Source: Meloidogyne chitwoodi
Taxonomy: Eukaryota > Nematoda > Chromadorea > Rhabditida > Meloidogynidae
Assembly (NCBI GenBank): GCA_015183035.1
Contig: JACZZP010000012.1
Location: forward strand, 1,674,001-1,738,000
DNA length: 64,000 nt
Direction: 5' to 3'
Shown here: positions 6,701 to 27,449 of the stretch, in pieces
How positions within the stretch are numbered: position 1 is the stretch's first letter
Layout of the letters: every line of letters starts with the position of its first letter
Notes under the pieces: generated by a model
What the model was told of the DNA's origin: nothing
Seen by the model: the letters and a program-made list of their open reading frames with translations, nothing else
Databases searched by the model: none
Made by a program: the position numbers and the translations under genes

Positions 6701-9167
6701 TTGAAGAAATAATTATTATTTAAATGGATAAATACATAAAAGCAAAATAAATAATTTTATTAATAAAAAATAATATAAATAATTTAAATTAAATATTTTA
6801 AATAATTTAACTCACAAAATACTACTAAATTAACAAAAAATTAACTAAAAATATCTTTTAAATAATTTAAAAAATTACCAGGTATTTTATAAATTTTTTC
6901 ATCATTAATATTTAAAAATTGAAGATATTGTGGAGTAAATATACTAGGAAAAGCATTAAAAGTATTTTTAATGTTTAAAGCTTCAAAAACAGCAAAAGAA
7001 CCATTCATATCATCAAATTCAGCAATTCCAATATCATAACTTTGTTTTTTAAGATAATCAAAAATACCAATTTGTTTATTTCCAATTTCAACTTTTTGAT
7101 TTTTCATCATTATTTCTTTAAAAAAATAAATTTTTAATAATAAATAAAATAAATTTTTTTTTAATTTACTAAAATAATTAAAAATATAAAATTAAAATAT
7201 ATTTTTTTAACAAATATTTCTGTTTAATTAAATTTTATAAAACTTTACCATAATAAATACCAACATATTTATAATCTGATGAATGTTTATATTTTATCAG
7301 TAGTTCTTCAGGATCTAGATATCCATTATCAAATCTAGACGTATTTATTTCTACTTTAATAAATTTTACATTTATTTTAATTCTTTTAATTCTGCTAGAA
7401 TGATAGTAGACAATTAAATCCTGAAAAGATAAAATAAGGAATTTAAATTTAATGATCCTATCTATTATGTATTTTCATTACAATTAAAACACAAAATAAT
7501 TTGTTTTGAAAAATTATGTCAAAAGGAATAACTGAAACCTAAGAAAGGCCGGATATCCAAAAATCGAATATCCGGTAATTCTCCAAGAATAGACAACCTT
7601 ATTTTTAGTCAAAATTTAATTCCATCAACTTAAATCAGAGAGAGAGAAAATACATATATAAAGGTATTTAAAATTATATAGGATTTTAAATAAAGAAAAA
7701 TGTATAATTTAAAATTTGGAATAGCACAAGTACATAAATATTATAAATAATATTTAAGTATATTTATTATAATATTTTTAAATATTACATACCACAGTAT
7801 TGTATTTTCCTCTTAAAAGTTTGACCAAAGTAGTCTAAAAATTTAATATTATAATTAAATTATTTTTTAAATATATTTTAAATAATAATAAAATTAAATA
7901 AAGGAAATCTTCTAAAATAGACATGGGGAAATTAATTTTTTGGAAATTGTGTAGTTTAAGGATAAAAAACATACATTCACAGAAATAAATAGAAATGCGT
8001 GAACTTTATATCATTCGAAAGAGCTCGTCGAGCTGAGCCTAATGGAACTACTATCATTGTCCAACATTAAATATTAGCCGAGATACAGGTCCCTGAATAT
8101 CAAAAAACCATAGAGGGGAGTAAGCTCCTCTAAGTGATTACCGCGGCTGCTCGCATAAACTTTGATATATTGGGGGTCTTTTATTATTTCTTTATTTTTA
8201 GGCTATGGCTAGTTGGTCTTCACACAAATTCGGAATTATTGAGGATGTTTGATCAAGAAAAATTAATTTTGCAGAAATAATTAAAGAGCAGCCGCGGTAA
8301 TCACATAGAGGATCTTACTCCCCTCTATGGTTTTTCAATTTTCAGGAACCTGTATCTCGGCCTTGAATTAAGACAACTGGCTAATTTTGGTATTATTCAA
8401 CTCAGCTCGACGAGCTTTTTCGATTGATCTATAGATCACGCATTTCTACCTATTTCTGTGAATGCATTTTTTACCTTAAACTACACAAGTTCTACTTTTT
8501 CAATCCTTCGGGTCAGATGTGTGCGAAACAGCAAATTTTTTCCCAACGAAACGAAAGACACAAAAATTGTTTAATTTTTTTCGTTACGAAACAAAACTAA
8601 GCTGAAAAATATCACGAACTTTACAAAACTACGAAACAAACGAAACGTTTCGCACACGTCTGCTTTGGGTGTTGAAAAAAATATTTAAAAAAGGTCTTTT
8701 ATATTTTTCCAATGTTTTACTAATATGTAATAGGTAGGTTATTTAAAATGTTTAAAGTAATTTAACTTATTAATTTTAAAAATATTAAAAAATATTAATT
8801 AAAAATTTACATTGAATTGCAAATGTGAGTAATGAAAATTATCACAAATATACAAAACTTTTTTATTTAATTTTTCCTCTTTAATTTCATCATTATCAGA
8901 ACATTCTTCAAAATCTTCTATTTCTTCATCTTTAAAAATTTCTTCTTCTTCTTCATCTACTACAATTTGCTTTCCTTTACGTTTTCTTTCTTTATCAGAA
9001 TTATATCCTTTTTCTTTTTCTTTCTTTCCAAGACAACTACAACCAACACCTCTTTTATATCTTCGAGAGATTACCTTTTCATTTTTAGGACATTTACAAT
9101 TTCTTCCAAAAGAAATATTAATAAAAATTAATAAAAATAATAAAATTAAAGTAATTAATTTATACAT
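774..9167 (-). CDS. secreted UDP-glycosyltransferase-like protein, intact copy
   Basis: Nine exons, all in phase: 9167-8811, 7834-7793, 7420-7249, 7115-6879, 6610-6249, 6012-5793, 5738-5683, 1130-946 and 900-774; 585 residues. Residues 1-20 form a signal peptide (MYKLITLILLFLLIF). Residues 21 to about 103 are a charged insert with Cys residues (RNCKCPKNE, GVGCSCLG, then an acidic run). The GT1 fold follows: an N-terminal strand with the YSH histidine near 114, NDKIIYIGGI in exon 5, SFGTV in exon 6, and the nucleotide-sugar signature LFISHCGQNSLNEAMYAG plus IPFEYDQ at about 472-505. Known UGTs end in a membrane anchor and cytosolic tail; this one stops at KIDEDI with neither, so a soluble secreted or ER-lumenal product is inferred. 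The start lies five bases after TTTTAG, a likely trans-splice acceptor. Intron 7 is 4.5 kb of repeats. The substrate cannot be told. Confidence 0.85.
1162..1942. mobile_element. Merlin-like foldback element in UGT intron 7
   Basis: Long terminal inverted repeats begin GGTAAATGTAGTTGGCTATC and extend about 290 bp on each side. A perfect 9-bp target duplication, ATTTGAAAA, lies at 1153-1161 and 1943-1951. The ends share the GGTAAATG start of the element at 28405-29001, which holds a transposase relic. I see no convincing transposase in the 270-bp centre. An 8-9 bp duplication fits the Merlin superfamily. Confidence 0.75.
2240..4340. repeat. GC-richer repetitive block inside UGT intron 7
   Basis: Unlike the surrounding DNA, this block is moderately GC-rich. 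It holds a short tandem array (2440-2700) and, at 3640-4000, three or so degenerate units sharing GCCATTTCAGTGCCGCAC and TTACCCATTATCC. Open frames of 60-105 codons occur (for example 3137-3454 and 3506-3691), but none shows a recognisable domain and they overlap the repeats. I read it as remnants of unknown repeats, not genes. Confidence 0.5.
2440..2700. repeat. tandem array with a palindromic core
   Basis: Three units of about 110-120 bp each contain GCGTTTGAGGGCC, a short centre and GGCCCTCAAACGC, a perfect hairpin. The hairpins are joined by CCGCTAAAGTTTGGAAA and GTGGTGGGTTAAAAGT. Unit-to-unit differences are single bases. Confidence 0.75.
4390..5554. mobile_element. hAT-like MITE with degenerate CCGG-rich arrays
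   Basis: The ends are the inverted repeats TAGTGACCGG (4390-4399) and CCGGTCACTA (5545-5554). Inside, both ends carry degenerate arrays of GGTCCGGC-type motifs, and the middle is AT-rich with the phrase CGCCTGCGGCGCT. The YAGNG start of the ends fits hAT elements. I could not find a clean 8-bp duplication, so the superfamily is inferred from its relatives at 15738, 27841 and 38971. Confidence 0.55.
7938..8505. mobile_element. foldback element in UGT intron 1
   Basis: Imperfect inverted repeats of about 250 bp: the left arm has GTGTAGTTTAAGG and AAAGAGCTCGTCGAGCTGAG, the right arm CTCAGCTCGACGAGCT and CCTTAAACTACAC. The inner phrase ACCATAGAGGGGAGTAAGCT is shared in part with the foldback element at 31369-31963, so the two belong to one superfamily. 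No coding content seen. Confidence 0.65.
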
Positions 9168-9826: not shown

Positions 9827-9949
9827 GCGTTTTTTATAATAATTATGGGATTTTTAAATTTTAAAAACTTTAAAAAATTATAGGGAATTTTTAATAAAAT
9901 ATTTTAAATAAAATTTTAAAATTATTTTATAAAATAAAAAATGAAGAGT

Positions 9950-10195
9950 GAAGGGGGGAATATTTAAAACATTTACAGCCCCATGTCTTTCATATGGTCT
10001 CATGTGAATGTACTTATAAAGGAGAAAGAGTATTCATTTTAAATACTATTTATCTTCTTTTCCACCTGACTTTAGACTTTTTTATGCTACCAAAAAATTA
10101 ATGCATTAACTCACATCTCTTAATTAAACACAAAATAAATATAAAATTTTAAAAGGGCATTGGAAATTGATTTTTTAAAAAGATTTTTTTTAATT
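9950..10195 (-). promoter_or_regulatory. conserved UGT-family upstream block (for 774-9167)
   Basis: Read on the minus strand this holds TTTTGTGTTTAATTAAGAGA, TGAGTTAATGCATTAA, AAAGTCAGGTGGAAAAG, CATGAGACCATATGAAAGAC and ATGGGGCTGTAAATG in that order. The same order occurs upstream of the plus-strand copies. Conservation at the same relative place suggests promoter function. The Merlin element has since been inserted between this block and the start codon. Confidence 0.6.
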
Positions 10196-10233
10196 TTATA
10201 AAGTTTTTCAAAATTTTTTTAAATTATTTTAAG

Positions 10234-10335
10234 ACACATTGGAAAAACATGTTGACGATATTTTTGCTATTGCTCATAAATATCAGGTAGAATTGTTAAA
10301 ATATGAATGCGAACTTATTATGTCCAATTTTATTG
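10234..10335 (+). pseudogene. relic exon of a BTB-domain gene
   Basis: Between an acceptor (TTTTAAG) and a donor (GTAAGT) lies one open exon encoding [28 protein letters not shown] and SNFI. The pattern (LL/IF..A.KY....LK..CE) is the end of a BTB/POZ domain as in SPOP-like MATH-BTB proteins. No other exon of such a gene is visible, so this is probably a stranded fragment. A second, inverted copy lies at 42228-42329. Confidence 0.6.
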
Positions 10336-10424
10336 GTAAGTTTTAACATTTTTTAAATTAAATTTTCATTTCTATATTTTAAAAATTTTTAAAAAAATTA
10401 AAACATTTATTATCATTAATTATT

Positions 10425-10961
10425 AGAACTGCAGATTTTAGTTTTTTAACTATTTTTTTTTGCTGAATGTACAAGTCGAGATATGCACAAAAAACGTATA
10501 ATTGAGCAATAATTGTTGATTTGAACACAACTATTGGCAACTATTTTAACTATTTTGGCTTTTTAAACTATTTTGAACTATTTGGGATTTTTAGGGATTT
10601 TATTAACTATTTTGGCATTTTTTGCCAAAGTTCAGACAAAAAAATATCTTAAATATTGAAAAAAAGTCAAAAACGGTTCATGGCAGAAAATTATATAAAT
10701 GGAAGATCGTAAAAAATTTCTCTGACATTTTGTTTGTTTACCCTTAGTGACATTTTGTTTGTTTACCCTTAGTGACATTTTGTCTGTTTTCCCTTTGTGA
10801 CATTTTGTCAATTTTTTCCTTTGTGACATTTTGTCAATTTTTTCCTTTGTGACATTTTGTCAATTTTTTCCTTAATGACATTTTGTCAAAAGTTAAATAA
10901 GCCAAAATATTAAATTTTTAGCAACTATTTTGCATTTTTAGAAACTATAATCTGCAGCCCT
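10425..10961. mobile_element. TIR insertion between polyketide synthase 3' end and BTB relic
   Basis: Ends are the inverted repeats AGAACTGCAGATTTTAG and CTATAATCTGCAGCCCT. The interior repeats ACTATTTTGGC-like phrases and holds a minisatellite. The duplicated block at 42113-42329 lacks this stretch: there the polyketide synthase tail joins the BTB relic directly, so 42113 shows the empty site. No coding content. Confidence 0.6.
10725..10893. repeat. 25-26 bp minisatellite
   Basis: About 6.5 units beginning GACATTTTGT and continuing either TTGTTTACCCTTAGT or CAATTTTTTCCTTTGT. Two sub-types lie in two blocks, showing local duplication. The minus-strand frame through it is only a translation of the repeat. 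Confidence 0.85.
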
Positions 10962-10970
10962 ATTAATTAC

Positions 10971-11950
10971 TTAAAATTCAATAACTTTTACACACAATTC
11001 TTCCAATATTTCTTTATATTTTTCAAGACAATTTAAATCAAGAATACCTTCATGATCTACATTTTCACATTTAATTAAATAAAGTTTTTTAGTTAAACAA
11101 GACCATCCTCCATCTTTTGAGTCACCAATATAATCACTGATAATTAATTTAAAATAATTTATTAATATTAATTTATTACCTAAAAAATAATTTTGATTTT
11201 TTCTCTGCAGTAAAAAGCCAAATTTCCGGAGAAAATTCAATATTATTATTTGTATTGAATTTATGTTTACGTAAAAATTCTGCCAAAATTTCTGCACCAT
11301 TGGAAAGAGAATTACGCTGATGTGCTGGGAAATGTTTAAAAAGGTCCTTAAAATTAGTAAATATAAAAAAAGTTCAAAAAAATTAATTTTACCAAAACAA
11401 ATTCTTTAGCCTTTTTTGGATAAATTAATTCTTGACCAACAGCCCAAGAGTCAAACATTATAATAAGAGGAATTTTTAAAAAAAGAGAAGAATTTTCAAA
11501 ATATTTTTGATTAAAAATAAGAGAAATTTCTCGGGCAATAACTCCTCCCAAAGAATGACCAAGTAAAATTAATGATGGTTTTTCTTCTTCTTTTCCTTTG
11601 GAAGAAATTAAATAATTTTCAATCTGTTAAAAATTATTAAAAAATTATTTTTTAATTTAATTTTTTAACCTGTTCAGCATAATATTTAGCTAATTCTACC
11701 AAATTGAAAGTTTTATTTAATAAAAAAGATTCAAATTCTAATGGAAATTGAATACCAACAATATTTACCCATTTAGGTAAAATTTTAGCTAAATTTGTAT
11801 ATAAAAGTGCTGATCCACTAATTGGATGGAGACAAAAAATATTTAAAAATAATTTATTTTTATAAAGTGTTGTTCTCTTTTTAAGTGGTAAAAATATAGA
11901 AGAAGAAAATAAATTATTTTCTTTTTCTAATTTTGTTGTTTTTACTACTA
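10971..11950 (-). other. thioesterase domain of the polyketide synthase
   Basis: Four exons. The first strand reads [15 protein letters not shown], the nucleophile elbow is [15 protein letters not shown], and the general-base histidine lies in [10 protein letters not shown] near the end. These are the Ser and His of an alpha/beta-hydrolase thioesterase that releases the chain by hydrolysis or cyclisation. The protein ends [11 protein letters not shown] with the stop at 10971-10973. I see no ACP between the AT and this domain. Confidence 0.85.
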
Positions 11951-14900
11951 TAAAAAATATTAAAATAAAAAGAAATTAATTTATTATTTTATTATTTAAT
12001 TTATTGAGAGAATATGTATATTAATTACTTTGAGTTTTAAATGATTCAAATATTTCTTCTTCTTTCGAATGATTTAATTCTTTTAAAAATTCAATTAATT
12101 TATTATCCAATTTATTATTATAAGAATTAAATAATAAATCAAAATTAATTTGAAAACCATACTTTAAAAATTAAAAAAAATTATTTTTTTAAATTAAAAA
12201 AAAATATTTTAACCTGCCAAAGTTGAGCTATTGCTTTTAATAATTGTGGAGGTTCTTCTTCTTTTTCTCCAATTAATATTTTTCTTTCATTTTCCATTGT
12301 TTTAATAATTTTTATTTTTTTATTTTGTTCAATTCCAAATTCATTTTCTGTTTCATTTATTAAATTAGGTAAAATACTAGAAGGGCCAATTTCTAATAAA
12401 AGACGAATATTAGGAAAATCACGTAATAATCTAAATTAAAAAATTAATTTTTAAATTTATTTTATTTTAAAAATATTATTTCTAACGTTTTCAAGCAAAG
12501 ATCTAATCTCACAGGTTCAGATAATTGTTTTCCCAAATATTCAGCCAAATCCAAAGGTTGATTTAAAAGATTTCCATCCAAATTTGAAATTACATTTTTA
12601 ACATTTTTTTGTTTTGACCATTTTGTATTTTTATTAAATATTTGTTCAACAGAAAATTTAAAATCTTTAATAATTGGACCCATAAATTCATTAGAATGAT
12701 AGCCATAATTAATTTTTTCCAAAATTTTGGCAGATTTAATTTTTTGATTTTTTCCTTCTTTAAGAATTTTATTAGCAACATTTTCAATATTTGAGGGTAT
12801 TCCAACAATTACGGAAATACTGGGAGAGAGACGAGCAGATAAATAAACTTGTTGATGAATAAGTTGCTAAAAAATAAATTTAAAAAAATTAATTAATTAT
12901 TTTTTAATTAATTAATTAATTAAAATATATTTCTTACAAAATTTTCATTTTGTTCAATTTCATTTCGTATCATTAACATTTTTGCTGGTTTAGTCCCTTT
13001 TTCAATTAATTTTCCCCTTTTCCATAATAATTTAATTCCTTTATTTATATTAAAATATCCAGCAGCACATAATGCACAGATTTCACCAAAACTGTGTCCA
13101 AAAAATAATTTAATGTTTTTTAAATTACAAATTTTCAATAAAAAAAGCCAAAGTGATTGATAAATGGCAAAAAGTGAGCATTGAATAAATGAAGGGGATG
13201 ATGAAAAAATATTTTTTGAAAAAATTTCATTTTTATTTTCATCAATATTTGTTTCATTATTTTCTATTTGTTTGCAAATATCAACAATTTTATTATTTAA
13301 TGAAGGAAAAAGTTGTCGTTCAAGGAGAAACATACCGGGAAATTGAACTTAAATAAAAAAAGAAACTTAAGAAAAGATCAACTTAAAAAATATAAACAAA
13401 CACTCAACAATAATTATTTATTTATTACAATACAAAAATATTTACATAATGTCACACAAGAAAATAGGTACAATAAGAATCACACAAGAAAATTGGGGGC
13501 AATTACATACAATTTATACATATTTATGAGGGAATCCTATCACGTTTTGGCATCATCTGACTGCCGCTTACATGTTGTACTCGATCGGCAAGTTCTTTCG
13601 GCGCACCATCCCGTCTCCCTGGAACCATTCGCGGCGGAATTGCTTGGCTGCTCCCTCCGGTGTGTTGGTCCATTCGACAGTGACACGATCGTTGTTGGTC
13701 GCTTCCGCAGCCGGATCGAAGGCGTCACAAGAGATGGCGATATTGATGGCCTCCTTCGGGTCGAGAACACCATTTGGCGGGTCCATGTTCAGACGGCGAG
13801 GGTTGGTCGTCTTGAAGGCGAAGCCGATACGATGACCGCCAGAGTTGATCACCTTTAATTTAAAAAAGAATAATTATTAGTGGTTATCTTTAATTAAATA
13901 AAATAAATTCACCTTCATGTAGTAGGTGTGCTTGTCATCGAACGGAGCGTTGAAGATCACCTTCACGGCAGGCAAGGTCGTGATGTCGCCGGGTGGAACA
14001 GATGCCATCGTTGAGAAGAGTTGTTTTGTTGATGTTGTTGATTGGAGTTGAAGAAAGCTGGTTGATGATGAATGGACATTCGATCAAGTTTTTATAGTTC
14101 TCTTCTGTTCTAGAACTTTTTTTGGTATAAAAACCTGATTAATTACTCACTCATCATCAACCAGCTTTCTTCAACTCCAATCAACAACATCAACAAAACA
14201 ACTCTTCTCAACGATGGCATCTGTTCCACCCGGCGACATCACGACCTTGCCTGCCGTGAAGGTGATCTTCAACGCTCCGTTCGATGACAAGCACACCTAC
14301 TACATGAAGGTGAATTTATTTTATTTAATTAAAGATAACCACTAATAATTATTCTTTTTTAAATTAAAGGTGATCAACTCTGGCGGTCATCGTATCGGCT
14401 TCGCCTTCAAGACGACCAACCCTCGCCGTCTGAACATGGACCCGCCAAATGGTGTTCTCGACCCGAAGGAGGCCATCAATATCGCCATCTCTTGTGACGC
14501 CTTCGATCCGGCTGCGGAAGCGACCAACAACGATCGTGTCACTGTCGAATGGACCAACACACCGGAGGGAGCAGCCAAGCAATTCCGCCGCGAATGGTTC
14601 CAGGGAGACGGGATGGTGCGCCGAAAGAACTTGCCGATCGAGTACAACATGTAAGCGGCAGTCAGATGATGCCAAAACGTGATAGGATTCCCTCATAAAT
14701 ATGTATAAATTGTATGTAATTGCCCCCAATTTTCTTGTGTGATTCTTATTGTACCTATTTTCTTGTGTGACATTATGTAAATATTTTTGTATTGTAATAA
14801 ATAAATAATTATTATTGAGTGTTTGTTTATATTTTTTAAGTTGATCTTTTCTTGAAATTTAGTTGTGAGATTTTTGGATTTTTAGCTTAAATTGTTTTTT

Positions 14901-17900
14901 CTCTAATTTTTGCCCAACCATTATTTTTTTTAAATCTTGAAAGTTGTTATGTTAAATAGTTTCTTTTATTGAGATAATTCGGGAATAATTTTAAAAAATT
15001 CTGAAAAAATTCTGAGGTAATTCTAAATTAATTCTGAAATTATAAAAACTATTCTGATTACTCTTTTTTACATAATTGATAAATAAACTTACTTCCCTGT
15101 GGACCAAAAAACACAGCTAACTTTTCCTCATTATTATTTTCATAATTTTCTATAATAATGTCTTCATTATTAACTATTTTAAGCAATTCTTTATTTAATT
15201 CAATTAAATTTCTTGCCAATATAAATGCTCTAAAACGAAAATAATGTTCTAGGCGAAATAATAAAGTATTTGATAATTGGTCCAAATTTGGATTTTCCTA
15301 AAAATATTTTTTCAAATATTCACAAATAATTAAAAAATTACTTTTATAACATATTCTGCTAATTTAGAAGCAAAAAATTTTAAAGAATTTTTTGATTCTG
15401 CACTGAGAGGAAATAGACGGAATTTTGTAGCTTCTTTATTAAATAAAGGAGGAATATTATTTTGTTTATTTTCTTTTAAATAATTATTTTTAATTAAATT
15501 TTCATCAAATCTTTTAGCAATAACTCCTTCAATATTTATTAAACAATTTTTATCATTATCAAAAATATTAAAGCTTCCAACAGCTATAAAATTATTATTA
15601 TTTAATTTTGCTTCTCCTATACAATAAATATTAGAAGGAATTCTCTAAAAAAAATTAATTTTTAAAATAAAAAATTAAAAAGAAAATTGACTTTCGTTTT
15701 AAGAACACTTTAATATAGACAAATATAACCTGAGGACCAGTGATCGGAAAGTTCCAGTTCCAGTTCCGGAACTATGGAACTACAAATTTCTGGAACTGGT
15801 TCGGAACTGGAACCATGGAACTACCAAATTTTTGGAACTGGAACTGGCCCGGAACTAGTCCTTACCCCACAATAGTTCCGGAACTGGAACTGGAACTATG
15901 AAAATTAAAAATGCAGTTCCGGAACTGGAACTGCAAAAATTCAAAAACAAGTTCCGGAACTGGAACTAGTTCCGTGGAAATTTTGGAACTTTACGATCAC
16001 TGCTGAGGACTCTCGTTATAATTATACCGTAATATTTGTATTTATAAAGGGAGATAAATAATTTAAATGAAAGTAATAAAAGTAAATTAGTGGGTTTGCA
16101 ATATTTATAATTTTCAATAAATTTTCCCACGAAAAAAAACTTTAAAAATATTTATAATTTTTAATCAAAAAAATATTAATTTTTTAAAGCTTCGATAAGT
16201 TTTAAATTTTTAAATTCTTCACAACTAAAATTTTTTACCTTAAAATTATTTAAATAATTTATTTTAACTAAATCAATTGAAATAGGCAAATAAAAATATT
16301 CTTTTTCCATTTGATAAATACATAAAGCCAAAGTTTGTAATCCAAATTCAATTAATTTCCATTTTTGTTGTTTTTCATCAATTATCATTTTTGATTTAAT
16401 TTTTATTTTTTTATCTATTTTTTAAAAAATTAAATAAAAAAATAATTTTAAAATATTATACTTTTAATTTTATTTTCTAAAAAAACATTTGCTTCATCTA
16501 TAAATTGCATTTTTGGGCCATAATTAATTCCTTTATTTTTTATATTATTGTAAAATTCTTTAACATTAAAAATAATTGTTTGACCATTTATTTCAATTTT
16601 TTTGTTATTTTTAATTAATTCCCTAAAATATATTTTTTAAATTAAAAAATAAAAATAAAATAATAAACTTATTAAATAATTTTGAAATTATTTGACAAGA
16701 AGAAAAACAGCTTTTTTCTTTTTCTCCAAAATTTTGTTGTTTTTCTTCTACAATTAATTTTAATAAAAAACCTTCATAATCATTAATTATTTTATTTTTA
16801 TTTTTAATTATTTTTGAATTTTTCCAATCTGTTAAAAACATTTTTTGATTAAATTTAATTTCTTTAATTAATAAATTTTTATTTTCAAAATTATTTTCCG
16901 TCTCTAAGTTTTTTAAATAATAATTAATAAATTGTTCTATTTGAAAAGCTGCAGGTACTAAAGGTTGGTTAAATAATAAATGATTTTGACAATAAATTGA
17001 AATATTTTTATTTTGACTTTCAAAGGCTAAATTAATGTCCTTTAAGTTGTTTTTAATTAAAAAAGTATTTTTAGAATATTTTCTGTTTTCATCAAGTTCA
17101 AAACGTTCAAATAAATATTTTGCCAATTTTTCAATATTTCCTCTCTCAAAAAGGTCAATAATATTAATTTTAATTCCAAATAATTCCAATCTCTTATTTA
17201 AATCACTTTTTAATTGATAAAGTCTTAAAGAGTCTAATCCCATTTCCATAAAACCCAAAGATTTAAAATTTAAATTTTCTACAAAATTATTAATACTTTT
17301 TCCTTCCTCTTTAAAGTCTTCATTTAAGCTATAAATTTGTTTTAAAACTTGAGAGGTTATAATTTCTTCAAAATTTGGAATATTTTGTTTTATTGAATTA
17401 TTTAATTTTTGTAAATTTATTTTTTCTTCTTTAATATTTTTAAAATTATTTTTATTATTTTTAATTATTTTTTCTTCTTTTTGTTCTTCAATATCCTCAA
17501 ATCTTTTATAAAAATCTTCAAAATTTTCTTTTAATTTTTTCCAATCAAATTTTCCTATTAATAATTGTGTAGGTTGATATTTTAAAGCAATTTTAAAGCA
17601 ATAAAGAGCTAATTTAGTTGTTAGCCCAGTAAACCCTAGAGAATTGAGTAATTCATTAGTTCCTGGTTTACTAGCTGCCATACCGACCTTAATCAAAAGA
17701 AAATATTTTTTAAATTATTTTATATTAAAGTTAATAGGAAAAACATCAAATATAAACATAAAACTGATTTAATAATTTATTATAATTTTAATAATTTTTT
17801 TTTATTGAATTTTAGACTATTTTAGTCTCACAGAAGTTTAATTTTATTTTAAATTTTTTAAAAATTTTCTTTTTTACCTCCAACCAATTACCCCAATTCA

Positions 17901-20900
17901 AAACAGTCCCAGAATATCCATTTTCTTTTCTTTTGTGAATTAAAGCATCACAAAAAGCATTTGCCGCCGAATAAGCACTTTGCCCATTATTTGGTTGTAA
18001 AGAAGTTAAAGAAGAATTAATTATAAAATGAACAGGATTTAAATTATATAAACTAAATAAATAAATAATTAAATATTTTATTTAAAAAAAATACTTTAGT
18101 AAATAATCAATTAAAAATGCTCCTTCAGCTTTAGGTCCAACAACTTTACCCAAAGAAGAAGATTCCATTGCAGCCATTGGGGCATTTATTAAAATACCAG
18201 CAGAATGAATAATTCCATTTAATTGAAGCATTTCTGGCCTAATATGTAGAATATTAAATATATTTTTAATTAATTATTAAAAATCATCTCACATTTCAAA
18301 AATTTCTTTCATAATTTCAACATCAGTAACATTGCATAATTTAAGTTTAACACAACAATATTTATTCATTTGTTTAAAATAATTCCAAAATATATCATTT
18401 TTATTAGGTTTATTCCTTGCTAATAATATTAAATATTTTAATGAAGAAGAAAATTCTTTGGTCAGCCAATAAGCGATCTAATTAATTTAATTTTTAATTA
18501 ATTTAAAAATTATTTAATTTATATTTTAAGCAAAAATATAGTCAACTCTCGTTATAAAGAGATCCAGTAGGTGTTCCCTTTATCTGATATCCTAATATTT
18601 AGATTTGTTTTTTGAAGAGAAATTAAGGGAATGAAAGGTAAGTGTCCTTATAAGGAATATTCAATGTCCTTATAATTAGAATCAAATTAAGTAGAATATT
18701 TAAAAATTATTAAAAATAATTTTATGAATTTTCCCTTTTAAATATAAAAATTCAAACTTGTAATCCAATCCCTTTAGTTCCACCAGTAATAAGCCAAGTA
18801 CCTCTAGGTATCCATTCATCATTTTTATTAAATAAATTGTTATTTTCATTATTTAATTCTTTAAAAAAATTTTTAAAATAATATTCTTTTAAATTTATTG
18901 AATAAAATTCAAAAAAATCATTTCCCATTTCAAATTGAAAATTTTGAAAAAAATTGATAATAAAATTTAAAATAGGTAGTTGATTATTTTCTTTAATATT
19001 ATTAGTTGTTAATTTTAATATTATTTTTTGTTTTTTAATTATTAAAATAAAAATACGGCAAAGATATAAAATAGCATTTGAATAAATTTTTATTAAATTA
19101 ATTTGATCAGAAATTTTTAAATTTTTAGAATTTTGAAGAAAAATAATATTTAAATTAATAATTAAAGCCTTTAAAAATTAAATTTAAATTTTAAAAATAT
19201 TTTTTAATTTTTTCTTACCTTTTTTATTCCTTCTCCATTATAATTTAATTCTTCTTTTTCTTCTTCTTTTTGATAAATTTTTTCAAAAAGTTTAATTAAA
19301 TTTTCTTCAAAATTATTTTTATTTTTTAAATTTATTAAATATTTTATTATTTTTTCTTCTTTTTCTCTTTTTTTAATTTCAAAAATAATTTCAAAATTAT
19401 TTTTTATTAAAATTTTTATTAAAATATTGGGAGGATTCTCTGAAGATTTTTTAATTATTTTTTCTTTTTCTTCTCTAACAATAAAAATACATTCTTTAGC
19501 AGCTATTTTTAAAAACTTTTCTTCTTCTTTTAAATTTTTTTCTTCTTTTTTAATAAAATAATTTTCTTTAATTTTATTACTACAAATGTTTTTATTATTT
19601 TTAAGTTTTTTATTTACTATTTTATTTTTTTTATTATTATTTTTAGTTTTTTGTTCAACTTCTTTATCTTCTTCATCTGTTGATTCAAATTCTTTTTCCT
19701 CATATTCATCTTTTTTTTCTTTATCTTCATTTTCTTCATCGTTATAATTCCCTTTCTCTTCTTCTTCTTCATCATCGTCCTCTTCTTTATTCTTATCCCC
19801 TTTTTCATTTTCTTCTTTCTCTTCTTCATCATTCTCTTCCTCGTACTCCTTTTCATCATTTCCGTCTTTGTCCTCTTCTTCGTTATTCTCCTCTTCAGCA
19901 TCGTCCTCATCTTTATCTTCATCGTCATTCTCTTCATCTGTATCTTCCTCTTTTTCTTCATTCTCTTCCTCTTCCTCCTCATCTTCTTCTTTATTATTAT
20001 TTTCATCATCTTCATTCTCATCTTTATCCTCCTCTTCAACATTCTCTTCTTCTTCAATTTTATTATCAATCAATTCAATTAATTCATTTGCTCTTCCAAT
20101 CATAAAAATATCAGCTGGTGTTATCCCCTTTTTATTATTAATTTTAAATTTCTGATTAAATTCTTGTGATAAAGCCATTAAAGAAATTGAATCTAATCCT
20201 AATTGTGTTAAACTCATATCTAACCAATTTATTGGTAATTTAGCTGATGGAAGGGCAGAACATAAAATTTGACCAATTTGTTTAGTTAATTGTTTTTTAG
20301 AAGAATTATTAATTAAATTCTTTTAAAAAAATTTAATTAAATATTTTTTATAAATTTTATTAAATTAATTGTTCAAAAATAATTAAATTTATAAGTATAT
20401 TAAAAATTAATTAATTTTTAACTATTTTACCCCAAAAAATTAAATAATTTTAAATAAATTTTTTTCTTACATTTTTTTCAATTTTCATTGCTTTGCAATT
20501 ATTTTTTTGAATAAAATTTTGTTGATTAGAATAGTTAACTTTTTCCTTTTTTAATTCAAAAATAATAAAAATTTTGCCTTTTAAATCTAAAACTTTAACC
20601 AAATGAGAATTTTTTTGTTCATAAAAACGTAAAATATATTCTTTTTGTTTTCTTTAAAAATTAATAAATTATTTTATTAAATTAAAATTAATTAATTCAA
20701 ACCTTTCTTTAAATTCATCATCTTCATTATTAGGGAATACTTTAATTGTTTGAATTTCTTCAATTTTTTTTAAATAATTAAAATATTCAAATATCTTAAA
20801 ATTATTTTAAATTATTTTTAAAAAATATTAAAAAATAATAATAAAGAGGAGATAATCCTTTAATTTTATAATTTAAAAAATTTGAGGATGTGATTGTCTT

Positions 20901-23900
20901 CAATAGTCCATAAACGACACACAAGTGGGACAGTTTTAATTCTCCAACCTCCACTGCGCGTATTTTAGGCCCCGCGCAACCTCCACACAAGTGCAACATC
21001 CGAAGATGAGACTCAAACTCCAGGGCATTTGTATTTGTTTTTAGTTTTGTTTTTGTTTTTGTTTTTGTTTATTTGTTTTGTTTTATGCTTTCGATTAGTG
21101 CTTTGAGTCTAGACTCTAAGAGTTCATCGTCCGCACCCCACAAGGAATCGGCATAGACCTCAACACAGTGTCTAACGCACTACCACATCCATGCGAGTGT
21201 TAGAGAAATTTCTCTTATATATAATGCAAGGAAATTAATTTCTCTTTTCTTCGATGTGTTGTAAAACAAGTGGTTAGAGTAGATAATTAATATACTTACA
21301 CTCTTTTTTTGTTTTTCTTTTATTTTTCTCTGTTATTTTGTAATATTTCTAGTTTATTTATTTTTTAATATAAAAATTAATTTTAAATATTTTAAAATTT
21401 AAAAATTTAAAATTAAAACTAACTTGAACTAAAATATTTTCCATAATTTGTGAATTAAATAAAATTAATTTATTATTATTATCATTTTCTTCATTATTAT
21501 CTCCTTCATAATTATTATTTAAATATTTTTCCTTCTTTAAAAAATTATTTTCTTCTTTTTCTTTTTTATTTTTACTAAAATTAATTTTTTCTTCTTTTAA
21601 TTTTACTAAACAAATTAATTTTTTATTTTTATTTTTTTCTTCTCCCCAAATTTTAATTAAATTATTTTCTTCTTTTTTTAAAAAAATTTGTGTAATTAGC
21701 CATTGCTTTCCTTTTTTATTAATAAATTCTAAAATATTTAATTGCTCAAATTTAATTGAAATTGAATTTAATTTTAAATATTTATAGCCAATAGCTATTA
21801 TTAATTCAATTAATAGACCAATTATATGACAATTTATATTTAATGAATTATTTGATAACTGAAAAATATTTTTTTTTAATTATTTTTTAATTTTATAATA
21901 ATTAAAAATTAATACTAATTTTATATTAGCAAAAAACATTAATTTAAAGAAAGAGAAGATTAAAAAATATTTTTAAAAGGAAAAGCTGTGCAACGCAGAG
22001 AAAGTTAACTTACTCTGCGTTCTCTTCCTTTGCTTAACATTAATTACTCTTACATTTGGTTTTTTTAACATAACTTTTTTTAAAATTAAGATAAAAATAT
22101 AATCTAAATTTTAAAAAATAAATAATAAAATTAGACTTTATTAAAAAATAAAATTTTATAAAATTAGATTAATTTTTGATAAATTTATGGAAAAATTTTG
22201 AATAGAAGATCTACCCCCAATATTTTTAAATTTTCTTCTGAGAAAAAATAAAAAATTTTAAAAATTTTTTACCTTTGATAAAAGCCAAGGCATTCTTTTT
22301 GTACATAAAAGAGATTCAAATTGAATAAAATTATTATTATTATTATTTATAAAATTTCCTAAAAGAGGATGGCAACCAAAATTATTATTTAATTTCCAAG
22401 CATCTTTTAAAGTCCAAAAACGATTTTGTCTATCAAAAGAATATTTTGGTAATTTAATTAATTTTAAATAATTATTATTATTTATTATTGGATAAATTAT
22501 TTTCCAATTTAATTTAATTCCATTAGAATAACCAAAAGCTAAAAGTTGACATAAATCATTAGAATTATTTAAATAAGTAAATGAATATTCTTTTTTTGTT
22601 TTAAAAGGTCCAATAATTAATTTAGTATTATTTGATGAAATTGATAATAATTTATTATTTATTATATCTTTAAAAAATAATATTATTTTATTAAAATAAT
22701 ATTTTTATTGAACACTCAGTTTTATAAAAATATTTAAAAAATTTAATCTTATTATTTTAATTTAAATTTTTAAAAAAAGGTAGGTCTATATAAATCTTTC
22801 TCTACAATAACCTAAAAAGGTTTTCTTCTTAAAATATATACTTAAATAATATTTATATAATTGAACACTCAAGGGAAGTGTTCCCTTGAATTATCACTAG
22901 AACTACATAAATTCAACTTTAATTTAATTTTTAATTTAATTTAAATAAAATAAATTTAATACACTTACCTAATTCTTCTTCTTTCTCTTCATTATTTTCT
23001 ATTTTTTTAATTTCTTCAATAAATTTAATAATTTTATTTTTTGTCATTTTGTCTTCTTCCCAAATAATTTCTCTAAATAAATTAATTAATATTAAATTAT
23101 TATTTTTATTAATTATTTCATTTTCTTTTTTAATTAATCCAAAATCTTTTAATATTTTAAAACGTCCAAAAGTATCAGCTAATTTAATTATTGAATTGTC
23201 TAATTCTTTTATATTTTTATTATTTCCTTCAATTTTATTAATAATTAAATTAAATGCTTGTTTATAGGCATAAACTTGATTATATAAATTAAAAGACATT
23301 TTAGGCCAAAAACCAAAACAATAATTTATTGAAGTTATATTATTATTATCCTTTAAATTAATTAAATTAAATTATTTAATTAAATTTAAATTAATTTTAA
23401 ATATTTTTAAATATTTTAGAGGCAAATTTTGTTTACTTTTTTTTAACAAATATTTTAAATAATAAATGGTATCGAGATGTTGGACTGACACTGAGTTCGA
23501 ATTAGTATTTCTCTAGTTGTAGCCTTTAAACCGGTTTTTTTGTTTCTGGACTAAATAAATAAAAATCTGATTTATCTGGCCCTTCTCTATTCAAAAATTT
23601 CTAGTCCAGAATTAACCCAATAAATTTAATTTTAAAACAAAAAATTGAAATTTCTGTTTTTATTTAATTTAATAAAATATTAAAAAAATTATTTAAGATA
23701 CTACCTTTCTAACAATAATATTCTCTTCTTTTATTTCTTCACTTTCTTTATTCTCTTCAGGAAAAATTATAACGGCCCTAACATTTAATGGAGGATTTTT
23801 AAAATTATTATTATCAATTAAATTCCCTGCTGCCGCACAAATTTCATTAATTTTCCATTCTTTTTGATTTTTTATAAAATTTAGATATTTTTTTAAAATT

Positions 23901-26900
23901 TTATTCATTGAATATTCTGAATTAGCTGCTAAAGGTAATAATCTTTGCCATTTTTGAGAACTTTGTTTTTCCATTTGTTGGTGTAATTTTTTAATTTGTA
24001 TTGATTCAACTGATCTATCTAATGAAATAATGGCACAGGAGAGAGTCCCAGACACACCAAAGGAACTTACACCCGCAAATAATTTTTTCTTTGAAAAATT
24101 AAATTTTTTTTTTAATTTTTTGAGATAAAATGTCACTTACTCTATTTTTATTTAATTTAATTAATTCAGTTTTGACATTTGCTATTTTAATAGGCCATTT
24201 ATTTTCATTATTTCCTCTTCCATTTGCTTCCATTCCTTTTACAATTTGAGGATTAATTTGTTTAAAATTTGGTAGAGGAGGCATTTCCCCATATTTTAAT
24301 TGAAGAATTGCCTAAGAGAAAAAAATTATTTTTTACTTAAATAAATTCCACTATTACTTTCATAATACCCACAAGACCAGAAGCTGCTTCAGTATGTCCA
24401 ATATTAGCTTTTGCACTTCCTAACAAAACTTTTTGAGTAATTCCAACATTAGACAATGCCTTTGCCAATGCCAAAAATTCAATAGGATCGCCAAGGGCAG
24501 TTCCAGTCCCATGACATTCCCAACAGCAAAGTGATCGTTTCTGTTCTGAATTAAGCTTTTCAAGACATTTAATAATTAATTGTTTTTGTGATAATCCATT
24601 AGGAGCGCTCAATGCAGAGCTATGCCCATCATGTCCACATTCTATTGACTTTTAATTAATTAATTAATTTATTTAATTAAATTTTAAAAAATATTTAATT
24701 TTACTTCAATTACTCCCCAATGAGGTAATAATTCCAATTTATCAAAAGAAACACCTTCAATCATCATTACAACACAACCATCTCCTCTCCCATAACCATT
24801 AGCATCAACATCAAAAACTCGACAACAACCATCTTCTGACAACATACCAGCATTTGCACGTTGAGCTATTTTTAATTTTTAAAATATTTTTTTATAAATG
24901 ATTTTAAACTAATAATTTAAAAAATATTTATTTTTTTCTTAAACTTGGTGGTCATTTTACACTGGCTAGAGAAAAATCTCTCCTTTTAGCACACTATTTT
25001 TAATTTCTATGATTTTAATTAAATTATAACATTTAAATATAATTAAATTTTAAAATAATAATTTTAAATTAAAAAAATAAAAGTTTTTACCTAATCCTTT
25101 AGCTGTAAGGGTTAAATTAACCCCTCCAACTATTGCTCTAGGACATCTCCCTGTTTTTATTGCATCAACCGCTAATTGTAAAGCTACAAGAGAAGAAGAA
25201 CAAGCAGTGTCTAAAGAAAGTGTAGGTCCTCTAGAAAAACATTTTTTAAAGAAAAAAGAAAAAAATTCAAAAAAAATTTTACTTGCAATCCAAAAAATGT
25301 GCCAATCTTCCAGAAAATGCAGATGCCGCCGTTCCGAGCATTTGTAAAGCGTTTCCTTTTTGATCAGTTAATTCATAATATTCATTACTCATAAATCCAA
25401 TAAAAACTCCGCATTGTTCAATTTCTTTTTTCGAATTAAAATTTATTTGTTGTACACATTCCCAAGCACATTCAAGTAAAAGTCGTTGTTGAGGGTCTAA
25501 TGCTGAAGATTCCAAAGCTGATAAACCAAAAAAATTAGCATCGAAACGGGCCAAATCAAAATTAAGAAAATGGCCTCCTTCAACTTTAAAAAAGAGTAAA
25601 AAATAAATTAATTATAATTTAATATTTACTAGGAACATTTCCACCATTAAATTCTCCTTTAATTAATAAATTTCTTTCAATAATTCTATTTGCTGGTATT
25701 CTTTGATTAGTTGAACTACCTTCTTTTAAAAGTTTCCAAAATTGTTCAGGAGTGTTAATATTGCCAGGTAATCGACAAGCAATTGAACTAATAATTACTT
25801 CCAATTCATTTTTCTAAATTTTTAAAGAATTTATTTTTTGAATCTAAACCACAAGCCCTTCACTATTAATACTTAAGGGAAATACGACGAAAATTTCCCG
25901 CAACTAAAAAATTAAAAAATTTCCCTAATAACTTTTCAATAGACACCTTAGGGTAAATTATCCTATCTCCTTAATTACTAAAAGTCAATGTTACCCTATT
26001 TCTAATTTATTTAATATTCCCCTTTACTTTCAATTTACCTCACTAATTTTAAAAATTAAAAAAAAGTTTAAATATTTAATTTACTTTAATATTAATTTCT
26101 TTAATTTTTGTTTCATTAATTTCTTTATAATTTTTTTCATCAAACATTTGAAAAAGTAAATTTTCTCCAAACAATATTATTTCCCCTAAATTTTCTTCTT
26201 CTAACCAAAAATTGCCTAAAGGCTTCTTTTCATTTAAATTAACAGAAAAATACATTTTAATTTTATTTATTTCTCCAAAATCTTTTTTTAATAATTTTTG
26301 GCTAATGTAAAGTCTGCCAATTGAAAAAGGAACAAAAATTTGTTGATTTTTTGTTTTCTGAAATTTTAAAGAATTAATTTACTATTTTTTTTGCGCGAAG
26401 ATGTGTTTAATCTTTCGCACATAAGTTAGCTAATAATTTATTTAAAATTCTAAAATTTTGCAATAATATCAATTATAGTGTTAACTAATCATTATAAAAA
26501 TTACAGAATTTTTGGATTTATATTTTAAAAGTTATTTTCAAAAAACTCAGAATATCGACATTTTTTGAAAGTTTTTGGTTATAACTTCTGAAATAATTTA
26601 TCAAAAATTCTGAAATTTTTAGTAAAGTTAGATAACACATTTGAGGATTTTTAGGCAAATTTTCATAATTTTAGATTATCATTTGATTATTTTATGATCG
26701 CTCAACAAATTGTTGTTTGTCTTTTTTTAATTAATTATTAAAAAAAATAATTTTTTTACCAATTTATTTTCTTCTTTTTCTTCATTTTCTTTAATAAAAC
26801 AATAAATCATTGCTTGCCAAAGAGAATCCAATTTAATATCAATTAATTGTTTATTATTAATTTTAATATTATTATCTTCACATAATCCCCATATCTTTAA

Positions 26901-27449
26901 TTCACCCATTTCAAAGCCAATAGAATAACTAACAGATTTAACACTTTTAAATGATTTTCCAAAATTATAATTATATTTTTCTATTAAAAAATTATAAAAA
27001 TCTTTATGAAGAATTTTATAAGGAAAAGGAGGTTTTGGTGTTCTTGGAAGGGTAAAATCTAAAGAATTAAATTGTTCGGCAATAAATATATTTTTATCAG
27101 AATATTGAAGACAAATCTTTAAAAAATAAAATTTTTTTTTAAATTAAAATAAATAAATAAATAAATAGGTATATTTATTTACCTTAAATTCATCATTTTC
27201 TGAATTATTTAAAATAATTATCTTTTTTTCTAAAATAATATTATCTTCTTTCTCAAATAAAAATAAAGGTTTTAAAAAATAAATATTTTTTAAAATTATT
27301 TCTTTATTATTATTATTTAATAATGACCAAATAAATTTTAATAAAAGAGTAGAACCAGGCAAAACAGAAATATTATTATTATTATTAGATGGTTTATGTT
27401 CAAGTAAATAATTATTTATTTTAATTAAAATTATTTGTTTTTCTTCCAT
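10971..27449 (-). CDS. modular type I polyketide synthase
   Basis: About 33 exons and very roughly 3,300 residues by my exon sum; limits are approximate except around the MSP intron. Domain order is DH (27449-26090), KS (25815-23690), degenerate AT plus linker (23350-22400), DH (22400-20500), ACP (20320-20045), acidic linker, KR (19560-17570), ACP (17280-17060), DH (17000-15500), AT (15450-12230) and thioesterase (11950-10971). Catalytic motifs are intact: [17 protein letters not shown] and [21 protein letters not shown] and [19 protein letters not shown] and [26 protein letters not shown]. The product should be a short reduced or dehydrated acyl chain; its identity is unknown. C. elegans pks-1 is the natural comparison. 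The start at 27449 falls inside a DH domain, so an upstream exon or partner protein may be missing. It is not a normal animal fatty acid synthase: there is no ER domain and the order is wrong. Confidence 0.85.
13421..13426 (-). terminator. poly(A) signal of the left MSP gene
   Basis: AATAAA on the minus strand, mirror image of 14796-14801. It lies in sense orientation inside the polyketide synthase intron, about 75 bases before the next host exon, so it could end host transcripts early. Confidence 0.55.
13568..14008 (-). CDS. msp: major sperm protein (left copy)
   Basis: Two exons, 14008-13913 and 13852-13568, around a 60-bp intron, encode 126 residues, the normal MSP length. Diagnostic segments are [10 protein letters not shown] near the N-terminus, [50 protein letters not shown] and the end [16 protein letters not shown] then PIEYNM. 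MSP builds the filaments that drive the crawling of amoeboid nematode sperm and also acts as an oocyte signal. GC content is far above the surroundings. The gene lies inside a polyketide synthase intron on the same strand and is identical in protein to the copy at 14214-14654. It seems complete and functional; expression would be expected in the male or sperm-forming germ line. Confidence 0.95.
14089..14096 (-). promoter_or_regulatory. TATA box of the left MSP gene
   Basis: TATAAAAA on the minus strand, 81 bases before the ATG at 14008 and the exact mirror position of the box for the other copy. Confidence 0.6.
14126..14133 (+). promoter_or_regulatory. TATA box of the right MSP gene
   Basis: TATAAAAA, 81 bases before the ATG at 14214. 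The divergent promoters share a 205-bp interval between start codons. Confidence 0.6.
14214..14654 (+). CDS. msp: major sperm protein (right copy)
   Basis: Exons 14214-14309 and 14370-14654 with a 60-bp intron (GTGAAT...AAAG); 126 residues, identical to the left copy. The start is the first ATG after a C/A-rich leader and gives MASVPPGD, as in other MSPs. The product is the sperm motility protein of nematodes, an immunoglobulin-like fold that polymerises without bound nucleotide. The gene is antisense to the host polyketide synthase gene. A short intron in msp fits tylenchid nematodes, as C. elegans msp genes lack introns. Confidence 0.95.
14796..14801 (+). terminator. poly(A) signal of the right MSP gene
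   Basis: AATAAA 142 bases after the stop codon, followed by an AT-rich stretch; mirrored at 13421-13426. Confidence 0.55.
15738..16002. mobile_element. hAT-type MITE in a polyketide synthase intron
   Basis: Ends are CAGTGATCGGAAAGTTCC and its inverted match GGAACTTTACGATCACTG. A perfect 8-bp duplication, CTGAGGAC, flanks it (15730-15737 and 16003-16010). The inside is almost entirely degenerate repeats of GGAACTGGAACT type. The YAGNG ends and 8-bp duplication identify hAT. A related, incomplete copy lies at about 49165-49437. Confidence 0.85.
17060..17280 (-). other. second acyl carrier protein domain
   Basis: The segment [20 protein letters not shown] has the phosphopantetheine serine in MGLDSLRLY, followed by [19 protein letters not shown], the usual helix-4 pattern (DLFE....I..LA..L). 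Confidence 0.8.
17570..19560 (-). other. ketoreductase domain
   Basis: An N-terminal structural half (19560-18800) precedes the catalytic half. The NADPH-binding loop reads [15 protein letters not shown], then come [17 protein letters not shown] with the catalytic Ser, and [14 protein letters not shown] with the Tyr and Asn. All key residues are present, so an active reductase is expected. Confidence 0.8.
19680..20060 (-). repeat. acidic low-complexity linker (GAA/GAT-type tract)
   Basis: About 125 codons, almost all Glu, Asp, Asn or Lys, lie between the first ACP and the KR half-domain. The plus-strand shadow reads Ser/Leu/His-rich open frames, which are not genes. Such a flexible charged linker is unusually long for a polyketide synthase and probably grew by short-repeat expansion. 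Confidence 0.8.
20045..20320 (-). other. first acyl carrier protein domain
   Basis: [18 protein letters not shown] holds the phosphopantetheine attachment Ser, and [19 protein letters not shown] forms the following helices. It joins the acidic linker directly. Confidence 0.8.
20880..21330. mobile_element. GC-richer insertion in a polyketide synthase intron
   Basis: A 450-bp stretch differs sharply in composition from the intron around it, with a GTTTTT microsatellite at 21035-21085. On the minus strand it has phrases loosely like Pol III A and B boxes (GGTAGTGCGTTAG; GAGTTTGAGTCTC), so a tRNA-derived SINE is possible. I see no clear target duplication. Confidence 0.4.
22400..23350 (-). other. 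degenerate acyltransferase region after the KS
   Basis: The exon opening [20 protein letters not shown] resembles an AT start (F.GQG...M...LY). The end has the usual AT-DH linker ([17 protein letters not shown], then [13 protein letters not shown]). No GHSxGE motif occurs between, and the domain is shorter than normal, so this AT is probably inactive. The C-terminal AT would have to load extender units instead. Confidence 0.6.
23690..25815 (-). other. ketosynthase domain
   Basis: Begins [20 protein letters not shown]. The active-site Cys is in [15 protein letters not shown], and the two His are in [12 protein letters not shown] and [12 protein letters not shown]. It ends [15 protein letters not shown]. 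All three catalytic residues are present. Confidence 0.9.
26090..27449 (-). other. N-terminal dehydratase-like domain
   Basis: Reads [20 protein letters not shown], the hot-dog segment with the catalytic His, then [12 protein letters not shown] and [12 protein letters not shown] with the catalytic Asp position. The first strands of a normal DH domain are missing before the Met at 27449. Either the start is further upstream or the domain is truncated. Confidence 0.65.

What the first reader, a model, noticed from the sequence alone, without database searches (positions are those of the whole stretch)
13348..15092. Two MSP genes in a near-perfect palindrome inside a polyketide synthase intron
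The intron splits the AT motif (GPQG | IQFPGM), with normal splice sites at 15092 and 13348. Inside are two complete msp genes, head to head, with 703-bp arms that differ by one base. Nested genes occur in nematodes, but a GC-rich germline gene pair forming a palindrome within a catalytic-domain exon gap is unusual. The arms stop only 21 bases before the host acceptor.
Basis: partly seen in the sequence, partly recalled or inferred. Interest (0 to 1): 0.88.

Follow-up and report, generated by a model that had tools for sequence, protein, structure and literature searches.

The report
Palindromic sperm-gene pair inside an intron
A root-knot nematode carries two near-identical sperm-protein genes back to back as a palindrome inside an intron of a polyketide synthase gene; the same gene pair sits at four other places in the genome, and the two copies in a pair appear to be kept alike by copying from one to the other.

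Summary
Two 126-aa major sperm protein (MSP) genes lie head to head in 703-bp arms with one difference, in a 1,745-bp intron that splits the AT motif of a polyketide synthase (PKS). A Meloidogyne enterolobii homologue reads straight across the junction, so the intron is well supported. The interpretation needs changing. The palindrome is not peculiar to this intron: the five close MSP pairs found in this genome are all head-to-head units of about 1.5 kb, and homology between loci stops near the palindrome ends. Only the placement in an intron looks particular. Each pair has two different core promoters, A and B, in the middle. A resembles A across loci, while gene bodies mostly resemble their own partner (99.8% here, at most 91.4% to any other locus). 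This conflict is the signature of arm-to-arm gene conversion, not of recent duplication or misassembly. Best reading: a duplicated, conversion-maintained, bidirectionally promoted sperm-gene cassette that landed in a PKS intron and is spliced out. MSP conversion, inverted pairs and nested genes are each known; the combination is a new variant. A regulatory role of the hairpin in PKS pre-mRNA is possible but untested.

The parts
13369..14071 (.). left arm of the palindrome (703 nt, 1 mismatch to the right arm)
14151..14853 (.). right arm of the palindrome
14072..14150 (.). asymmetric centre: two unlike core promoters back to back (B-type to the left, A-type to the right)
14090..14096 (-). TATA box (TATAAAA on -) of the minus-strand msp gene, B-type core
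14108..14116 (.). TTCTAGAAC element at the centre; TTCTAGAAC or TTCTTGAAC in 5 of 5 pairs
14126..14132 (+). TATA box of the plus-strand msp gene, A-type core (preceded by a T-run and GG)
13568..14008 (-). msp gene 1: exon 14008-13913, intron 13912-13853, exon 13852-13568; 126 aa
14214..14654 (+). msp gene 2: exon 14214-14309, intron 14310-14369, exon 14370-14654; 126 aa, same protein
14796..14801 (+). AATAAA downstream of the + msp gene (candidate polyadenylation signal)
13417..13422 (-). AATAAA (on -) downstream of the - msp gene (candidate polyadenylation signal)
13348..15092 (-). host PKS intron of 1,745 nt, the longest of 33 in the crude gene model; about 260 nt without the palindrome
15093..15297 (-). 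PKS exon ending ...LAVFFGPQG, upstream half of the AT motif
12938..13347 (-). PKS exon beginning IQFPGM..., with the GHSFGE motif (AT active-site motif, recalled)
10996..27251 (-). host PKS gene, crude model of 34 exons, ends not determined: KS (about 25.8-24.3 kb), carrier (about 20.3 kb), KR (PF08659 match at about 18 kb), carrier (about 17.2 kb), AT (15.3-12.5 kb), thioesterase (about 11.8-11.4 kb)

Best explanation
The palindrome is a divergent MSP gene pair: two TATA boxes 29 bp apart would fire in opposite directions, and each gene runs outward to its own candidate polyadenylation signal (inferred from sequence). The pair behaves as one duplicating unit of about 1.5 kb; five copies were found and one sits in an intron of a multidomain PKS gene. 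In the pairs the transcribed parts are homogenised by gene conversion between the inverted arms, while the two core promoters at the centre keep an older A/B difference. The PKS pre-mRNA splices the whole unit out (the junction is shown at protein level by homologues, its use here is inferred). Most likely biological role: extra gene dosage of an abundant sperm protein, with conversion purging mutations. Shown: structure, A/B conflict, recurrence, protein-level junction. Inferred: expression, conversion as the process, dosage, absence of effect on the PKS.
For: Five pairs with the same head-to-head form and an alignable centre. Core promoter tree: the five A sides form one group (93/94, not starred); body tree: C4+ with C4- (100/98) and C5+ with C5- (100/100), and an A-side clade is rejected (AU p 1.9e-54). 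Perfect A/B split columns: 9 of 116 upstream (7 contiguous ones make one indel) and 0 of 715 in the body; of 16 orientation labellings only this one gives any. Within-pair identity of C4 is 100% in the intron and 99.5% in the 3' part, so selection on coding sequence alone does not explain it. Homology between loci ends 681-829 nt from the centre in 10 of 10 comparisons (hits over 300 nt, 2.5 kb each side). The 4 unpaired places are diverged, some with frame changes or missing parts. MSP conversion within clusters is inferred for Caenorhabditis (PMC5765362, passages).
Against: The whole 100-bp upstream tree did not recover A against B (AU p 0.072 for holding the A sides together). The cut at column 60 that gives the clean core tree was chosen after seeing the alignment, no core branch is starred, and the AU tests against the C4 and C5 pairs in the core could not be run because rows were identical (only C10b was tested: p 6.5e-5). 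In the body C10c and C10d group A-with-A and B-with-B rather than within pair (AU p 0.020 against the C10c pair); I read this as a recent copy of a whole pair. The C5 pair is only 89.9% alike within itself. A head-to-head pair of more distant MSP-domain genes at C5:1916k is not homogenised at all (115 nt at 71%). No reads, RNA or other species' DNA were available, so insertion age and expression are not shown.
Confidence: 0.82

Rival explanations
1. A single msp gene entered the intron and was duplicated in inverted orientation there very recently; the arms are alike because they are young, with no conversion.
For: One difference in 703 nt.
Against: The centre carries the same A and B core promoters as the 4 other pairs: over ungapped columns the C4+ upstream 100 bp is 100% identical to C5- but 91.2% to its own partner, and the core tree groups A sides across loci. 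The pair therefore predates its arms' similarity.
Confidence: 0.06
2. Assembly artefact (fold-back read or misjoin).
For: Artificial palindromes can come from erroneous scaffolding (PMC7953838, passage).
Against: Fold-back would also mirror the flanks, but pairing stops at the arm ends and the centre is asymmetric. The form recurs at 5 msp loci with locus-specific differences.
Confidence: 0.03
3. A foldback-type transposable element carrying msp genes, moved by a transposase.
For: Long inverted arms and unit ends with unrelated flanks. Foldback/Mutator elements (Tm1) exist in root-knot nematodes (PMC3169594, passages).
Against: No convincing target-site duplication at 6 loci: longest shared flank words 4-7 nt; two 7-nt words (L011, L012) were reached in 9 and 15 of 200 shuffles. 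The arms are genes with introns that end shortly after candidate polyadenylation signals. A transposase was not sought.
Confidence: 0.04
4. The nested palindrome has a regulatory job: transcription of the PKS makes a 700-bp intronic double-stranded RNA that feeds small-RNA silencing of msp outside the male germ line, or msp transcription interferes with the PKS.
For: The intron RNA is predicted to fold into one near-perfect hairpin (-1401.8 kcal/mol, no shuffle control at this length). In C. elegans PKS-1 acts in the canal-associated neurons, a somatic tissue (PMC8363725, passages). A nested gene can induce its host in C. elegans (PMC12274878, passages).
Against: No expression or small-RNA data. 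The other 4 pairs show that the form does not depend on this host. One-to-one orthology with PKS-1 was not tested.
Confidence: 0.05

Closest known systems
MSP gene clusters of Caenorhabditis under gene conversion (Kasimatis and Phillips 2017, PMC5765362)
   Same: Hyper-conserved MSP, lineage-specific copies, within-cluster homogenisation attributed to conversion, movement around the genome (passages)
   Different: There the paper infers movement of single genes followed by tandem duplication; here the unit is a dispersed divergent palindromic pair with two unlike core promoters, one copy nested in an intron
Adjacent inverted paralogues under conversion in C. elegans, e.g. hsp16 and hsp70 genes (review PMC3966223)
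   Same: Inverted, closely spaced paralogues thought to be kept alike by conversion; flanks of the hsp16 modules diverged (passages)
   Different: Different gene family; here 5 copies of one unit were found, plus one pair of an MSP-domain gene
[quoted passage not shown]
   Same: Genes in inverted copies homogenised by arm-to-arm conversion (passage); that many are testis genes is recalled
   Different: Much larger arms (recalled) on a non-recombining chromosome; here 0.7-kb arms, one gene each, chromosome type unknown
Nested genes in introns (567 opposite nested pairs in C. elegans, PMC12274878)
   Same: Protein-coding gene in an intron on the opposite strand (true of one of the two here; passages)
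   Different: Here a pair, one on each strand, forming a palindrome

Membership tests
Major sperm protein gene | MSP domain over the whole protein, about 126 aa | tested here: met
   PF00635 residues 9-112, E 3.4e-23; aligned over 3-126 with 2bvu, 'major sperm protein, isoform alpha', E 1.7e-64; 99% to a M. enterolobii and 98% to a M. incognita entry
Major sperm protein gene | Single short intron early in the gene (ancestral state per PMC5765362) | tested here: met
   60-nt intron after codon 32 in both copies
Major sperm protein gene | Sperm-limited expression | not testable with these tools
   no expression data
Inverted gene pair under concerted evolution | Paralogues in inverted orientation, more alike within than between loci | tested here: met
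   C4 99.8% within, at most 91.4% to other loci; body tree 100/98. Met by C4, C5 and (93/91) C10b; C10c and C10d instead match each other side by side
Inverted gene pair under concerted evolution | Pair older than its arms' similarity | tested here: met
   A and B core promoters shared across 5 loci; full upstream tree weaker
Nested gene | Lies wholly within a spliced intron of a host gene | tested here: met
   reading frame and homologue continuity across 15093/13347; RNA not available
Foldback / Mutator-like transposon (Tm1) | 8-10 bp target-site duplication (45 of 53 complete Tm1 elements, passage) | tested here: not met
Nematode PKS (PKS-1-like) | KS, AT, KR, carrier and thioesterase domains in one protein | tested here: met
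   in one crude spliced model; nematode relatives P0122 (Panagrellus) and P0142 (M. enterolobii). One-to-one orthology with C. elegans pks-1 not tested

The most novel reading that the evidence does not exclude
The msp palindrome is a self-maintaining gene cassette that spreads through the genome as a unit, and the copy in the PKS intron has become an endogenous hairpin-RNA source: wherever the PKS is transcribed, the spliced intron folds into a 700-bp duplex that silences msp outside the male germ line.
Probability: 0.06. Interest if true: 0.8.

Novelty: new variant of a known kind. Interest (0 to 1): 0.46.

Why it matters
The five pairs give a natural experiment on gene conversion: within about 1.5 kb each holds unconverted core promoters that record ancestry and converted gene bodies that do not, so conversion boundaries can be read closely. 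It offers a concrete mechanism for how MSP, described as among the most highly conserved genes identified (PMC5765362, abstract passage), stays uniform while its gene positions change. If the species reproduces partly without males, as some root-knot nematodes do (recalled), it would also be a test of how sperm genes escape decay. The nested copy makes a testable case of a long intronic inverted repeat in a biosynthetic gene.

Tried and rejected
Target-site duplications as a trace of transposition: none convincing at 6 loci. A dispersed repeat seen by eye in the open frames of L009, L011 and L016 as a carrier: rejected, it is very common genome-wide (82 matches at the 40 scored of 330 candidate places). 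A tree of the full 100-bp upstream region: mixed, because the 5'UTR part is itself a mosaic in some pairs; split at column 60 after seeing the alignment. Whether the other pairs are also nested: L009 lies between matches to two different gene families facing each other (matrixin on +, astacin/CUB on -); L016 is suggestive from open frames only and its two frames tried gave no Pfam match; L010 (Myb on one side), L011 (no match) and L015 (kinase on one side) are unresolved. So that this is the only nested pair is not shown. The PKS model printed 35 exons; I dropped the last 22-nt one at the edge of the region, leaving 34 and 33 introns.

Literature: I saw no paper on palindromic or head-to-head msp pairs in the listings (5 of 5 listed; 20 of 156; 20 of 514; 1 of 1; 6 of 6; 10 of 138); this is an open-access library and most listed papers were not opened. 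Ward 1988 on C. elegans msp organisation was seen only as a reference, and a 2006 paper by Thomas on inverted concerted pairs is recalled; neither could be read. No claim of first report is made. For the papers cited I saw passages only.

The genome is a Meloidogyne by its MSP. That it is M. chitwoodi is my recollection from assembly size and contig number; only a reference-list mention of that draft genome was seen.
Full report
What is there. The window is part of a 47.48-Mb, 30-contig assembly (C4:1674001-1738000) of a root-knot nematode: the MSP it encodes is 99% and 98% identical to Meloidogyne enterolobii and M. incognita entries. On the minus strand a multidomain polyketide synthase gene spans roughly 27.3-11.0 kb. 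A crude dynamic-programming gene model gives 34 exons (a 35th of 22 nt at the region's edge was dropped) and about 3,200 aa; gene ends were not determined. Pfam finds KS, two carrier domains, KR, AT and thioesterase. The model was trained on open frames of the same gene, so it is not independent evidence for each exon, but it chose the 15093/13347 junction with the palindrome left in. Independent support: M. enterolobii P0142 reads LAVFFSPQGVQFPGMF where the window reads [16 protein letters not shown], Panagrellus P0122 reads FFFAPQGIQYANM, and the match to the solved AT of CurL spans the junction; the Pfam AT match starts after it. The intron is the longest of 33 (1,745 nt; next 594). Without the 1,485-nt palindrome it would be about 260 nt.

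The palindrome. The arms are 703 nt with one mismatch and 25 further nt with 8 mismatches. Each arm holds a complete msp gene: 96-nt exon, 60-nt intron, 285-nt exon, 126 aa. The genes point outward. Between their ATGs lie 205 nt, with two TATA boxes 29 nt apart and a TTCTAGAAC element between them.

The same unit elsewhere. A PF00635 scan gave 31 matches in the genome, and DNA search with one arm gave 15 matches at 14 places (counts are lower bounds). Ten of the 14 places are copies matching at least 98% (713 bases) or, for one, 724 with gaps, of the query length, and they form 5 head-to-head pairs: C4 (this one), C10 at about 989.6, 1180.3 and 1201.8 kb (called C10b, C10c, C10d), and C5 at 697.5 kb. 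Four pairs encode the identical 126-aa protein; the C5 pair encodes two different 123-aa variants. The 4 remaining places (C10:656k, C8:423k, C2:181k, C10:722k) show no partner in the roughly 10 kb fetched around each and are diverged, some with a displaced exon, frame change or missing parts. In 10 of 10 comparisons between pairs the homology stops 681-829 nt from the centre, close to the ends of the palindrome, so the pair is the unit that was copied. A separate MSP-domain gene pair on C12 has the same form with 652-nt arms without a difference. Against generality: another head-to-head pair of MSP-domain genes, at C5:1916k, is not homogenised (115 nt at 71%).

Why gene conversion. In all five pairs one side has an A-type core (T-run, GG, TATAAAA) and the other a B-type core. 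With the five pairs oriented by this, 9 of 116 upstream columns split perfectly A against B (7 contiguous columns of one indel, 2 substitutions) and 0 of 715 body columns do. Of 16 possible orientation labellings only this one gives any such column. In the core (columns 1-60) mean identity is 90.5% A to A, 83.8% B to B, 76.6% A to B at different loci, and 67.4-78.9% within pairs. In the body it is 99.8% within C4, 98.4% within C10c and C10d, 97.6% within C10b and 89.9% within C5, against means of 90.0-91.3% between loci. The core tree puts the five A sides together (93/94); the body tree puts C4+ with C4- (100/98), C5+ with C5- (100/100) and C10b+ with C10b- (93/91), and rejects an A-side clade (AU p 1.9e-54). 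Intron and 3' sequence are as alike as the exons within C4 (100% and 99.5%), so coding constraint is not the reason. Against this reading: the full upstream tree does not recover A and B (AU p 0.072 for holding A together), because the 5'UTR is itself a mosaic (C5+ has a B core followed by a UTR like the C10 A sides); the cut at column 60 was made after looking; no core branch is starred; and in the core the test against a within-pair clade could be run for C10b only (p 6.5e-5), the C4 and C5 tests returning errors. The C10c and C10d bodies group A with A and B with B (AU p 0.020 against the C10c pair); I take these as a whole-pair duplication about 21 kb apart (98.3% over 1,574 nt in inverted orientation) that has not been re-homogenised since.

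Function and effect on the host. Most likely the pair supplies sperm protein from a bidirectional promoter, and the PKS splices it out; neither is shown by expression data. One msp gene lies on the host strand and one on the opposite strand. The RNA of the intron is predicted to form a single long hairpin (-1401.8 kcal/mol), which could recruit RNA editing or small-RNA pathways when the PKS is transcribed; this is inference without data. In C. elegans PKS-1 works in the canal-associated neurons (PMC8363725, passages), so host and guest may be expressed in different tissues, which would lessen interference; orthology with PKS-1 was not tested.

What is known. MSP conversion within clusters and lineage-specific movement are described for Caenorhabditis (PMC5765362, passages), inverted paralogues under conversion for C. 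elegans heat-shock genes (PMC3966223, passages), and opposite nested genes by the hundreds in C. elegans (PMC12274878, passages). A survey of parthenogenetic animals listed 1 palindrome (26 genes) in M. incognita and 3 (38 genes) in M. arenaria, by collinear blocks of annotated genes and counting individual genes in palindromic arrangements (PMC7953838, passages); whether these include msp pairs the passages do not say. Hence a new variant of a known kind, with a new setting, rather than a new kind.

Noticed in passing
window 15342-15644 (-): The M. enterolobii homologue P0142 carries a KS domain just before the AT linker; the window's gene model joins the two sides directly, and searches of the window and genome with P0142 matched that KS only to the gene's first KS. 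The gene seems to have lost a KS domain.
   Followed up: partly
L015 4326-5790 (C12 about 1196.5 kb): Head-to-head pair of an MSP-domain gene (117 aa) with 652-nt arms that do not differ at all and an asymmetric promoter centre.
   Followed up: partly
L017 4480-5474 (C5 about 1916.5 kb): Head-to-head pair of MSP-domain genes whose bodies are not alike (115 nt at 71%): the arrangement without homogenisation.
   Followed up: no
L013 and L014 (C30 about 754 kb and 725 kb): Two MSP-domain genes about 29 kb apart in opposite orientation in a block of about 1 kb, 92% identical.
   Followed up: no
L009 and L010 (C10 about 1180 and 1202 kb): Two whole msp palindromes about 21 kb apart, 98.3% identical over 1,574 nt in inverted orientation: a recent duplication of a pair.
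   Followed up: partly
window 14108-14116 and the centres of 4 other pairs: A TTCTAGAAC or TTCTTGAAC element between the two TATA boxes in 5 of 5 msp pairs; it resembles a heat-shock-type element (recalled), factor unknown.
   Followed up: no
window about 19.6-20.1 kb (-): Long Glu/Asp/Lys-rich stretch between the first carrier domain and the KR domain of the PKS model.
   Followed up: no
window 432-1149, 6140-7134, 9858-10428 and partners at about 29-54 kb: Several dispersed repeat families with inverted copies about 80-91% alike within the window.
   Followed up: no
L009 8863-9062 and many places: A repeat of about 150 bp that also matches itself in reverse occurs very often in the genome (82 matches at the 40 scored of 330 candidate places).
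   Followed up: no
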